A DNA stretch of 26,026 nucleotides from Xylophilus ampelinus. GTDB taxonomy: Bacteria > Pseudomonadota > Gammaproteobacteria > Burkholderiales > Burkholderiaceae_C. How positions within the stretch are numbered: position 1 is the stretch's first letter; the number at the start of each line of letters is the position of its first letter. Location: assembly GCF_901875635.1 (NCBI RefSeq), contig NZ_CABFMN010000133.1:1-26026 (forward strand). The letters are read 5' to 3'. This document shows positions 11,542 to 24,084 of this stretch, piece by piece. Position numbers and translations under genes: made by a program. Below the pieces are notes generated by a model. That model saw nothing but the letters and a program-made list of their open reading frames with translations. It was not told where the DNA came from and searched no databases.

Positions 11542-12501
11542 TCAGCCGGCAGCGGGCGGCCCGGCTTCGGCCAGCTCATCGTAAGGCCGCACCGTGACGC
11601 CCACGTCCAGCACGTGGCGCGCGCCGCCGTGCAGCACGCCGCGCATGGGCGAGACGTCGGCGTAGTCGCGGCCGATGGCCAGCACGACGTAGTCCTCGCC
11701 GGGCTGGCGGCCGTTGGTGGGGTCGAAGCCGGCCCAGTCGCCCTCGGTGACGAACGGGGCTTCGTCGTCCTCGTCGCCTTCGGCCGCGCGGCCGGGCAGG
11801 TAGACCTCGACCCAGGCGTGCGAGGCGTCCGCGCCGACCAGGCGCGGCTGGCCCGGTGGCGGCTGCGTGAGCAGGTAGCCGCTGACGTAGCGGGCGGGCA
11901 GGCCCAGGCCGCGGCAGCAGGCGATCATGATGTGCGCGAAGTCCTGGCATACGCCGCGGCGCTGCGCCAGGGCCTCCACGGCCGGCGTGTTGATCTCGGT
12001 GCTGCCGCTGTCGTAGTCGAAGTCGCGGTACATGCGCAGGGTGAGGTCCATCGCCGCCTCGAAAATCGGCCGGCCGGGCGTGAAGCTCTGGCGCGCGTAG
12101 GCGAGGAAGTTGTCATGCAGCGGCACGTAGCGCGACGGGAAGACGAACTCCGAGGCCGGGTCGTCGTGCACGCCCTTGCGGTAGCGGAAGCGCTCGCGCA
12201 CGGTTTCCCAGGGCAGTTCGGGCGCGGCCTCGGGGGCCAACTGCGGCGGAGTCGTCTCGACCAGGCTCTCGGCCGTCACCACGAGCTGGTCGTGCGTCGA
12301 TTCGAGCGCGAAGAAGGCGCGCGTGTTGCCGTAGACGTCGACCGATTCGCTGCGCTGCACCGGCTCGGGGCTGACCGACAGGCGGTGGTTCACCAGGCGC
12401 TGGCAGGCCCGCGTGAGCGGCTTGAGGTGCGCCATGTGCTGGGCGGTCTCGACGGCAGGCGAATAGTCGTAGCGCGTTTCGTGGGTGACGTGGAGCAGCA
12501 T
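11542..12501 (-). CDS. Transglutaminase-like domain protein (319 aa) of ATP-grasp/alpha-E module A
   Basis: This protein has an N-terminal beta domain typical of bacterial transglutaminase-like proteins (LLHVTHETRYDYSPAVETAQ, about 2-21; LKPLTRACQRLVNHRLSV). The catalytic core follows with a complete triad: C185 (RRGVCQDFAHIMIACCRGLG), H228 (DASHAWVEVYLPG) and D260 (WAGFDPTNGR). An acidic insert (EGDEDDEAP) separates H and D. Such proteins usually act as peptidases, not cross-linkers, and occur with ATP-grasp/alpha-E genes in a predicted peptide synthesis and processing system. No signal peptide is seen, so it is probably cytoplasmic. The ATG at 12501 lies two bases after the upstream gene's stop (12504), so the two are translationally coupled. 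A longer frame upstream is only a shadow of the ATP-grasp gene. Confidence 0.92.
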   Translation of the reverse strand: MLLHVTHETRYDYSPAVETAQHMAHLKPLTRACQRLVNHRLSVSPEPVQRSESVDVYGNTRAFFALESTHDQLVVTAESLVETTPPQLAPEAAPELPWETVRERFRYRKGVHDDPASEFVFPSRYVPLHDNFLAYARQSFTPGRPIFEAAMDLTLRMYRDFDYDSGSTEINTPAVEALAQRRGVCQDFAHIMIACCRGLGLPARYVSGYLLTQPPPGQPRLVGADASHAWVEVYLPGRAAEGDEDDEAPFVTEGDWAGFDPTNGRQPGEDYVVLAIGRDYADVSPMRGVLHGGARHVLDVGVTVRPYDELAEAGPPAAG

Positions 12502-12503
12502 GG

Positions 12504-23108: not shown

Positions 23109-23127
23109 AGAAGAGGAGGACACACAC

Positions 23128-24084
23128 ATGCTTTCACGCACCGCCGATCACCTCTACTGGATGTCGCGCTACACGGAGCGGGCCGAAAACACCGCCCGCA
23201 TGCTGGACATCAACTACCAGACCTCGCTGCTGCCGCAATCGGCGGAGATGGCGCAATCGGGCTGGCAGGGCGTGCTGTCCATCAGCGAACTGCGTCCCGC
23301 CTACTTCGCCAAGTACGACACCGTGACGCCCGAAGGCGTCATGGAGTTCATGATCAAGGACGAGGACAACCCGTCGTCGATCATCTCGTGCCTGCGGGCT
23401 GCGCGAGAGAACGCGCGGGCCGTGCGCGGCGCGCTCACCACCGAGTCGTGGGAAACCCAGAACACCACCTGGCTCGACGTCAACCGCATGCTGCGCTCCG
23501 GCAGCTTCGAGCGCGACCCCGGCGCGTTCTTCGAATGGGTGAAGTTCCGCTCGCACCTGTCGCGCGGCGTGACGCTGGGCACCATGCTGCAGGACGAGGC
23601 CTTCTACTTCTCGCGCCTGGGCACCTTCCTCGAGCGGGCGGACAACACCGCGCGCCTGGTCGATGTGAAGTTCCACGCCATGGGCAGCGAGTTCTTCGGC
23701 GCCGCCACCGAGGGCGACCAGGAGTACGACTTCTATCACTGGAGCGCGATCCTGCGCAGCGTCTCGGCCTTCGAGGTCTACCGCAAGGTGTACCGCGACG
23801 TGATCAAGCCCGAGCGCGTGGCCGAACTGCTGGTGCTGCGTGCCGACATGCCGCGCTCGCTGCATCACAGCCTCGGCGAGGTGGTCGCCAACCTGGCGAA
23901 GGTCGCCAACGACCAGAGCGCCGAAACCCAGCGCCGTGCCGGCAAGCTTTTGGCCGAGCTGCAGTACGGCCGCGTCGACGAAATCCTCGCCACCGGCCTG
24001 CATGCCTATCTCACGCAGTTCCTCGACCGGGTGAACGAACTGGGTGGCCGCATCAGCCAGGACTTCCTGGTGCCGGCGCACTGA
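23128..24084 (+). CDS. Alpha-E domain protein of module B
   Basis: A 318-aa all-helical alpha-E protein. The conserved N-terminal signature LSRTADHLYWMSRYTERAEN is close to that of the alpha-E part of the fusion at 12504-15239 (ENMFWLGRYTERAENT). Other conserved pieces are TFLERADNTARLVDVKFH, the NPSSIISCLRAARENARAVR helix and the late RADMPRSLHHSLGEVVANL. Its biochemical role is unknown; alpha-E almost always occurs beside or fused to circularly permuted ATP-grasp, suggesting a partner or substrate-binding subunit. The ATG at 23128 has a strong AGGAGG 9 bases upstream, 19 bases after the ATP-grasp stop, clearly one operon. No transglutaminase gene follows, unlike module A. Confidence 0.93.
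   Translation: MLSRTADHLYWMSRYTERAENTARMLDINYQTSLLPQSAEMAQSGWQGVLSISELRPAYFAKYDTVTPEGVMEFMIKDEDNPSSIISCLRAARENARAVRGALTTESWETQNTTWLDVNRMLRSGSFERDPGAFFEWVKFRSHLSRGVTLGTMLQDEAFYFSRLGTFLERADNTARLVDVKFHAMGSEFFGAATEGDQEYDFYHWSAILRSVSAFEVYRKVYRDVIKPERVAELLVLRADMPRSLHHSLGEVVANLAKVANDQSAETQRRAGKLLAELQYGRVDEILATGLHAYLTQFLDRVNELGGRISQDFLVPAH

What the first reader, a model, noticed from the sequence alone, without database searches (positions are those of the whole stretch)
11542..24084. Two ATP-grasp/alpha-E modules of different architecture flank comEC
Module A (minus strand) has a transglutaminase-DUF2126 protein, an ATP-grasp/alpha-E fusion and a second transglutaminase, the last two separated by only two bases. 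Module B (plus strand) encodes ATP-grasp and alpha-E as separate genes without a peptidase. Comparative genomics (Iyer, Aravind and colleagues, 2009) predicted such genes to build or attach peptides by amide-bond formation, with transglutaminase-fold enzymes as peptidases; as far as I know no product is established. Having both a fused and a split copy in one locus suggests two ligation steps or two substrates, with the peptidases of module A serving both. That shared role is inference.
Basis: partly seen in the sequence, partly recalled or inferred. Interest (0 to 1): 0.7.

Follow-up and report, generated by a model that had tools for sequence, protein, structure and literature searches.

The report
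Split nitrogen-starvation amide-ligase system
Two neighbouring gene clusters either side of the DNA-uptake gene comEC look like one bacterial system, probably switched on by nitrogen shortage, that joins and cuts amide bonds; in one cluster the ligase-like part appears to have lost its catalytic residues.

The parts
11542..12501 (-). stand-alone transglutaminase (TG2), 319 aa, Cys185-His228-Asp260
   Evidence: Pfam PF08379/PF01841; triad kept in 73 of 73 aligned family copies; best solved chain 3isr
12504..15239 (-). fused circularly permuted ATP-grasp + Alpha-E, 911 aa; ATP-grasp part predicted catalytically dead
   Evidence: Pfam; aligns to 3n6x at 263 bits; six motif residues absent in 70 of 70 fused copies
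15348..18866 (-). transglutaminase + DUF2126 (glutamine-synthetase-like putative amidoligase), 1172 aa
18947..18962 (-). sigma-54 -24/-12 type promoter TGGCGCATTCCTTGCT, beginning 96 nt upstream of the TG-DUF2126 start codon
   Evidence: only match with 1 mismatch in the window; sites of this class in 35 of 37 divergent relatives
19005..21524 (+). comEC/rec2 (between the modules; not shown to be part of the system)
   Evidence: TIGR00361 above cut-off; directly upstream of the split ATP-grasp in 73 of 119 genome loci with room
21552..21567 (+). sigma-54 -24/-12 type promoter TGGTCCTGAACTTGCT, beginning 45 nt upstream of ATG 21597
   Evidence: 2 mismatches; such sites in 103 of 121 family loci against 7.4 in shuffles
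21573..23108 (+). split circularly permuted ATP-grasp ligase (start 21573 or, more likely, 21597)
   Evidence: Pfam PF14403 556 bits; 696 bits to solved 3n6x; catalytic motifs 123 of 123 in split copies
23128..24084 (+). split Alpha-E protein, 318 aa
   Evidence: PF04168 332 bits

Best explanation
This is one amide-bond ligase/hydrolase system of the Anbu-associated kind, broken into two transcription units that flank comEC in this lineage. Shown or strongly supported by sequence: the unit pair is conserved, each unit has its own sigma-54-type promoter, the split ATP-grasp keeps its catalytic motifs, the fused ATP-grasp has lost them, both transglutaminases keep Cys-His-Asp, DUF2126 has a glutamine-synthetase-like predicted fold, and the peptidase homologue Anbu is encoded elsewhere in the two nearest genomes held. 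Inferred: when nitrogen is short, an enhancer-binding protein such as NtrC activates both promoters. The split ATP-grasp (helped by Alpha-E) and the DUF2126 domain each make an ATP-driven amide bond. The fused protein acts as a non-catalytic partner or scaffold. The transglutaminases and Anbu cut or rearrange the product. Product and substrates are unknown; a glutamyl- or peptide-amide made and broken down for nitrogen storage or recycling is my best guess.
For: Clustering in divergent, colinear and tandem arrangements. Sigma-54-type sites: split ATP-grasp 103/121 vs 7.4 in shuffles, opposite strand 5/121; TG-DUF2126 40/71, opposite strand 8/71, and by arrangement 35/37 divergent vs 0/26 in operon; controls comEC 6/92 (4.9 in shuffles), alpha-E 0/133 (7.1), TG2 3/65 (3.4), fusion 6/71 (2.7, somewhat above), Anbu 1/17 (1.2). 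Residues E176, N178, D334, D335, K336, D443: 123/123 split vs 0/70 fused. Co-occurrence alpha-E x Anbu [[120,10],[1,19]]. GS fold. Published: B. cenocepacia cluster I35_5080-83 (DUF404/407, DUF403, a TG protein, a large TG protein) is named a common target of sigma-54 and NtrC and listed at -6.0 to -9.4 in the ntrC-mutant table (PMC5491218, passages; column heading not seen). P. putida PP_2685 (proteasome beta-like) and PP_2688 (circularly permuted ATP-grasp) are up, log2 4.44 and 3.99, on nitrate against ammonium, and the PP_2688 promoter responded to nitrogen limitation in a reporter (PMC8050072, passages).
Against: No NtrC-like site lies upstream of either promoter in the window (best 4 and 5 mismatches in 400 bases); that site class is enriched upstream of split ATP-grasps (30/121 vs 6.4) but hardly upstream of TG-DUF2126 (7/71 vs 3.4). 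Outside the family, 25 of 28 TG-DUF2126 genes have no sigma-54-type site. Unlinked Anbu genes have none either: 0 of 15 and 0 of 2. In P. putida the PP_2685 promoter itself was nitrogen-agnostic in the reporter. In Y. bercovieri no stable complexes among the Anbu-operon proteins and no Anbu peptidase activity were detected (PMC6376114, passages), and Anbu-operon expression is reported unchanged under several other conditions (PMC5666114, passages). Anbu is missing in 10 of 130 alpha-E genomes. The window's own genome is not held, so Anbu there is inferred from G001 and G072. Fused copies keep D293/D294 (70 of 70), D159 and R445 (69 of 70), so some ligand binding may persist.
Confidence: 0.66

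Rival explanations
1. One reading: two active ATP-grasp/alpha-E ligases do two ligation steps or use two substrates, sharing module A's transglutaminases.
For: Both copies are conserved and clustered; fused proteins keep 51-66% identity between the four members compared.
Against: Fused copies lack E176, N178, D334, D335, K336 and D443 in 70 of 70, and the 20 fused copies from outside the family sample lack E176, N178, D334, D335 and K336 too; module B stands without Bact_transglu_N and DUF2126 in 11 genomes.
Confidence: 0.1
2. The fused ATP-grasp is an active enzyme with a remodelled site (for example R178, E334 and S335 in place of N178, D334 and D335), using another nucleotide or chemistry.
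For: Replacements are themselves conserved: R178 in 68 of 70, E334 in 70 of 70, S335 in 69 of 70; D159, D293, D294, R445 stay.
Against: The glycine-rich loop and its lysine are degenerate (K383 in 45 of 70, G392 in 3 of 70), while split copies keep them in 123 of 123.
Confidence: 0.2
3. Two independent systems that are merely neighbours; comEC linkage is inherited synteny and shared sigma-54 control is general nitrogen regulation.
For: 34 of 129 split-type loci show ATP-grasp/alpha-E with no part of module A and no Anbu in the stretch held; in several genomes outside the family (e.g. G184, G239, G338) DUF2126 and the split alpha-E lie far apart; Anbu tracks module B where module A is missing.
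Against: In 150 family genomes DUF2126 never occurs without alpha-E (95 of 95); DUF2126 follows the split alpha-E on the same strand in 26 of 129 loci; sigma-54-type sites follow the transcription-unit boundary.
Confidence: 0.22

Closest known systems
Anbu operon (ATP-grasp, alpha-E, transglutaminase, Anbu), credited to Valas and Bourne 2008 and Iyer et al. 2009 in PMC5666114 and PMC6376114 (passages)
   Same: Same kind of split ATP-grasp and alpha-E; nitrogen-starvation expression reported for Anbu
   Different: No Anbu in the window; the TGs lie in the other module; the pair is tied to comEC and to a second, DUF2126-bearing unit
DUF2126 / TG-amidoligase gene sets predicted by Iyer et al. 2009 (paper not held; recalled)
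   Same: TG + putative amidoligase with ATP-grasp/alpha-E
   Different: Here with a GS-like predicted fold and a fused ATP-grasp lacking catalytic residues; whether that paper noted this I could not check
NtrC/sigma-54-activated cluster I35_5080-83 of Burkholderia cenocepacia H111 (PMC5491218, passages)
   Same: ATP-grasp, alpha-E, a TG protein and a large TG protein, under sigma-54/NtrC
   Different: One cluster there; two oppositely oriented units here, each with its own sigma-54-type site
RloABC / RimBK systems (PMC12239564, passages)
   Same: ATP-grasp ligase paired with a peptidase and, in Rlo, a TG-fold protein
   Different: Other ATP-grasp family, retropepsin-like peptidase, inactive membrane TG; no such family appeared in the Pfam and NCBIfam scans of the window proteins given

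Membership tests
Anbu operon | split circularly permuted ATP-grasp directly followed by alpha-E | tested here: met
   21573-23108 and 23128-24084
Anbu operon | transglutaminase and Anbu in the same operon | tested here: not met
   No Anbu match among the window's open frames; the TGs are on the other strand in module A
Anbu operon | Anbu somewhere in the genome | tested here: inconclusive
   Present on another contig in G001 and G072, 61% identical to the query Anbu; the window's own assembly is not held
Active circularly permuted ATP-grasp (3n6x type) | catalytic/metal motifs in the split protein | tested here: met
   123 of 123 split copies
Active circularly permuted ATP-grasp (3n6x type) | catalytic/metal motifs in the fused protein | tested here: not met
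   0 of 70 at E176, N178, D334, D335, K336, D443; residue roles by analogy with E. coli GspS D318/E330/N332 (roles recalled; letters checked; profile alignment failed)
Glutamine-synthetase superfamily (DUF2126) | GS fold | tested here: met
Glutamine-synthetase superfamily (DUF2126) | catalytic residues | tested here: inconclusive
   E332, E736, N738, H783, E907, R909 invariant in 40 of 40, but not mapped residue by residue onto a GS structure
Transglutaminase-like hydrolases | Cys-His-Asp triad | tested here: met
   73 of 73 for TG2 and 73 of 73 for the TG of TG-DUF2126
Sigma-54-dependent promoters | -24 GG / -12 GC elements upstream of each unit | tested here: met
NtrC regulon | NtrC enhancer site | tested here: not met
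   best 4 and 5 mismatches within 400 bases upstream in the window

The most novel reading that the evidence does not exclude
Module A contains a conserved pseudo-ligase (ATP-grasp/alpha-E fusion) that works only as a structural or regulatory partner of two real ligases, the split ATP-grasp and a glutamine-synthetase-like DUF2126 enzyme, in a sigma-54-controlled nitrogen-starvation pathway whose product is finally processed by the proteasome homologue Anbu made from an unlinked gene. That would give Anbu a pathway and a condition for assay.
Probability: 0.42. Interest if true: 0.78.

Novelty: new variant of a known kind. Interest (0 to 1): 0.62.

Why it matters
As far as the papers I could see say, Anbu and its partner genes have no established function (PMC8665760 and PMC6376114, passages). 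The sigma-54-type promoters on both units suggest a growth condition, the catalytically empty fused ligase tells which proteins to assay, and the co-occurrence table says Anbu belongs to the same pathway even when its gene is elsewhere. Together they make the open question testable in a harmless laboratory strain.

Tried and rejected
Prolyl aminopeptidase as the missing peptidase of module B: rejected as part of the system, because the neighbour is seen in 1 of 72 named loci (L002) and 0 of 122 genome loci with room.

comEC as a functional partner: not claimed. It is directly upstream of the split ATP-grasp in 73 of 119 genome loci and 60 of 77 named loci with room, but comEC itself shows no sigma-54 signal (6 of 92 against 4.9 in shuffles), and in G003, G131 and G139 the modules face each other without it.

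Profile comparison of the split ATP-grasp with E. coli GspS gave no usable alignment, so the metal-ligand roles rest on motif analogy. The alpha-E model was too poor (pLDDT 59.1) and was not searched. Foldseek on the DUF2126 model had no match at E <= 0.001; its top five rows were low-probability matches with TM 0.08 or less (query) and no meaning, with glutamine synthetases from rank 6; the fold claim rests on the VIA realignment of that list. NtrC sites in the window and sigma-54-type sites upstream of TG-DUF2126 outside the family (3 of 28) were negative. The bare number of sigma-54-type matches in the window is at chance level (13 against 12.8). Iyer et al. 2009 and Valas and Bourne 2008 are not held, so what they said of the fused copy is unknown to me; my searches listed no paper on an inactive fused ATP-grasp, but I saw listings and passages only, and the library lacks most subscription papers.

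Rows dropped before counts: searches took only ATP-grasp segments over 350 residues (over 300); only TG segments over 150 and 200 residues; only hits over 100 bits with 200 or more upstream bases (3 of its 74 TG segments have no DUF2126 in frame); only TG-DUF2126 hits over 300 bits (71, all with DUF2126 in frame; 2 of the 71 had no annotated upstream gene and both had a site); one search left out 6 and 1 (aminopeptidase) and 3 and 4 (comEC) loci without room; one search left out two loci already in the family sample. Per-match lists are capped; per-genome tallies are complete. Co-occurrence counts are not corrected for phylogeny; the 150 genomes come from 141 genera.

Full report
WHAT IS THERE. 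The window (70.6% GC) comes from a Comamonadaceae relative of Xenophilus: its split ATP-grasp is 97-98% identical to copies in L001-L003, L003 being Xenophilus sp. E41, and some close TG-DUF2126 matches carry Xenophilus names. Minus strand: TG-DUF2126 (15348-18866), ATP-grasp/alpha-E fusion (12504-15239), TG (11542-12501), with a 2-base gap between the last two. Plus strand: comEC (19005-21524), ATP-grasp (21573 or 21597 to 23108), alpha-E (23128-24084), then prolyl aminopeptidase (24164-25117) and, on the other strand, tolA. Elsewhere in the window are a LacI-type regulator, a nitroreductase, dehydrogenases, LysR regulators and a tricarballylate (tcuAB/tctC) cluster.

ONE SYSTEM, SEVERAL ARRANGEMENTS. 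In a sample of 150 genomes of the family, alpha-E occurs in 130, DUF2126 in 95 and Bact_transglu_N in 119. For 129 strong split-type alpha-E hits in 126 genomes, DUF2126 lies within 25 kb upstream on the opposite strand in 39, downstream on the same strand in 26, upstream on the same strand in 8, on another contig in 19, far away on the contig in 2, and is lacking in the genome for 35. Gene orders (counted by rule) are: window type, DUF2126-TG divergent from comEC, ATP-grasp, alpha-E (34); the same without comEC between (3); colinear ATP-grasp, alpha-E, TG-DUF2126 and on to fusion and TG (23 by this rule); TG-DUF2126 before ATP-grasp, alpha-E in tandem (8); Anbu in the stretch but no DUF2126 (15, mostly ATP-grasp, alpha-E, TG, Anbu); fusion without DUF2126 (10); ATP-grasp/alpha-E with none of these (34); other (2). 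G003 and G131 carry the divergent type with Anbu directly behind alpha-E. Of the 80 named loci, 40 show the window type; the other 40 were not looked at further.

THE FUSED ATP-GRASP IS PROBABLY DEAD. The split protein matches the solved chain 3n6x at 696 bits over residues 11-488, the fused one at 263 bits. In family loci with ATP-grasp segments over 350 residues, E176, D177, N178, D334, D335, K336, K383 and D443 (split numbering) are kept in 123 of 123 split copies. In 70 fused-type copies E176, N178, D334, D335, K336 and D443 are kept in 0, D177 in 12, K383 in 45 and the glycine at 392 in 3. Twenty fused-type copies from outside the family sample all lack E176, N178, D334, D335 and K336. 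The D159/E176/N178 set resembles the D318/E330/N332 metal ligands of E. coli glutathionylspermidine synthetase; the letters are confirmed, their roles are recalled, and a profile alignment failed. By contrast both transglutaminases keep Cys-His-Asp in 73 of 73 aligned copies each. Conserved replacements (R178 in 68, E334 in 70, S335 in 69 of 70) mean that the fused protein is under its own constraint, so I infer a partner or scaffold role rather than decay.

SIGMA-54-TYPE PROMOTERS. The only one-mismatch match to TGGCAC-N5-TTGCW in the window is at 18947-18962 minus, just upstream of TG-DUF2126; a two-mismatch match lies at 21552-21567 plus, just upstream of the split ATP-grasp. The number of such matches in the whole window is at chance level (13 against 12.8 expected); the evidence is their place and conservation. 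With the GG and GC core required and at most two mismatches within 250 bases, sites occur upstream of 103 of 121 split ATP-grasps (7.4 in shuffles) and 41 of 74 TG segments of the TG-DUF2126 kind (3.8), against comEC 6 of 92 (4.9), alpha-E 0 of 133 (7.1), TG2 3 of 65 (3.4), fusion 6 of 71 (2.7) and Anbu 1 of 17 (1.2). Restricted to 71 proven TG-DUF2126 genes it is 40; on the opposite strand the stretches give 5 of 121 and 8 of 71. The decisive control is the arrangement: TG-DUF2126 has a site in 35 of 37 divergent loci and in 0 of 26 loci where it follows alpha-E or TG2; behind comEC on the same strand it is 3 of 6, and 2 of 2 with no annotated gene upstream. Flanks and spacer carry little information next to the -24 and -12 elements, though part of that contrast comes from requiring the core. 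Limits: outside the family only 3 of 28 TG-DUF2126 genes have a site, and NtrC-like enhancers are enriched upstream of split ATP-grasps (30 of 121 against 6.4) but not found in the window. Published data agree with nitrogen control of this gene kind: the B. cenocepacia cluster I35_5080-83 is a target of NtrC and sigma-54 (PMC5491218, passages); P. putida PP_2685 and PP_2688 rise on nitrate, and the PP_2688 promoter, not that of PP_2685, responds in a reporter (PMC8050072, passages); Anbu is reported high under nitrogen starvation (PMC6376114, passages), though unchanged under several other conditions (PMC5666114, passages); a CP_ATPgrasp_1 gene of Bradyrhizobium sp. DOA9 stands in a table of putative RpoN sites with TGGCCCGGCCCTTGC (PMC13207237, one passage).

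ANBU IS THE CONSTANT PARTNER. Anbu matches occur in 121 of 150 family genomes: 120 of 130 with alpha-E and 1 of 20 without (Fisher p about 7e-16, not corrected for phylogeny). In G001 and G072, nearest to the window, it lies on another contig than alpha-E. In G001 and G011 it sits just behind mutS, and unlinked Anbu genes showed no sigma-54-type site upstream (0 of 15; 0 of 2). Outside the family TG-DUF2126 lies next to Anbu in L223, L228, L229 and L242 of 30 loci. Module B without Bact_transglu_N: 12 of 130 alpha-E genomes (G041, a 74%-complete draft with DUF2126, and eleven without it, of which G113 is 76% complete and ten are 99% or more), all with an Anbu match. DUF2126 never occurs without alpha-E (95 of 95). 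Four alpha-E genomes had no strong split-type hit (G009, G051, G102, G105); three of them still hold a split-type ATP-grasp match, two with an internal stop and one partial, and G009 (65% complete) holds only the fused one.

MECHANISM. Shown by sequence: gene content, conservation, promoter motifs, catalytic residues, co-occurrence. From established knowledge: ATP-grasp and GS-type ligases activate a carboxylate with ATP and join it to an amine; the Y. bercovieri Anbu-operon ATP-grasp releases phosphate from ATP, while no peptidase activity of Anbu and no stable complex of the operon proteins was detected (PMC6376114, passages). Inferred: nitrogen shortage turns on both units; split ATP-grasp and DUF2126 make amide bonds in one product; the fused protein pairs or positions them; transglutaminases and Anbu hydrolyse or exchange. 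The product is unknown.

VERDICT. The claim of two ATP-grasp ligation steps does not stand; the claim of joint working does, for stronger reasons than given; the claim that module A's peptidases serve module B is neither needed nor excluded. I rate it a new variant of the Anbu-associated amidoligase systems, with three points that I did not find in the papers I could search: the catalytically empty fused ligase, the sigma-54-type sites that follow the transcription-unit boundary, and the unlinked but co-occurring Anbu.

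Noticed in passing
24164-25117: Prolyl aminopeptidase gene 79 bases behind alpha-E; shared only with close relative L002 among loci with room.
   Followed up: yes
L244:3239-6710 and L245:3185-6833: anbu lies directly behind mutS in two family genomes (G001, G011), with no ligase gene recognised in the stretches held.
   Followed up: partly
G102:C38:754-2178 and G105:C191:1485-2912: Split-type ATP-grasp matches with one internal TGA each, in genomes that lack a strong split alpha-E hit; in G102 an anbu lies beside it (C38:2373-3101).
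   Followed up: no
L142:1396-4792: In the nearest relative (G001) about 3.4 kb separates the fused ATP-grasp from DUF2126, where the window has a short gap; G133 (L110) shows a gap of about 3 kb too.
   Followed up: no
G051:C38:5519-7549, G064:C39:41221-43344, G122:C1:2758809-2760797: Second, divergent DUF2126 matches in open frames of about 700-750 aa, away from the main TG-DUF2126 gene.
   Followed up: no
P0007, P0256, P0278: TG-DUF2126 proteins are named 'IMP dehydrogenase' by some sources, apparently a misannotation.
   Followed up: no
L045: A contig binned as Akkermansia muciniphila (MAG) carries a split ATP-grasp 82% identical to the window's, probably a binning error.
   Followed up: no
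5669-10280 minus: Tricarballylate utilisation cluster (tctC-like receptor, tcuB, tcuA, LysR regulator) near module A.
   Followed up: no
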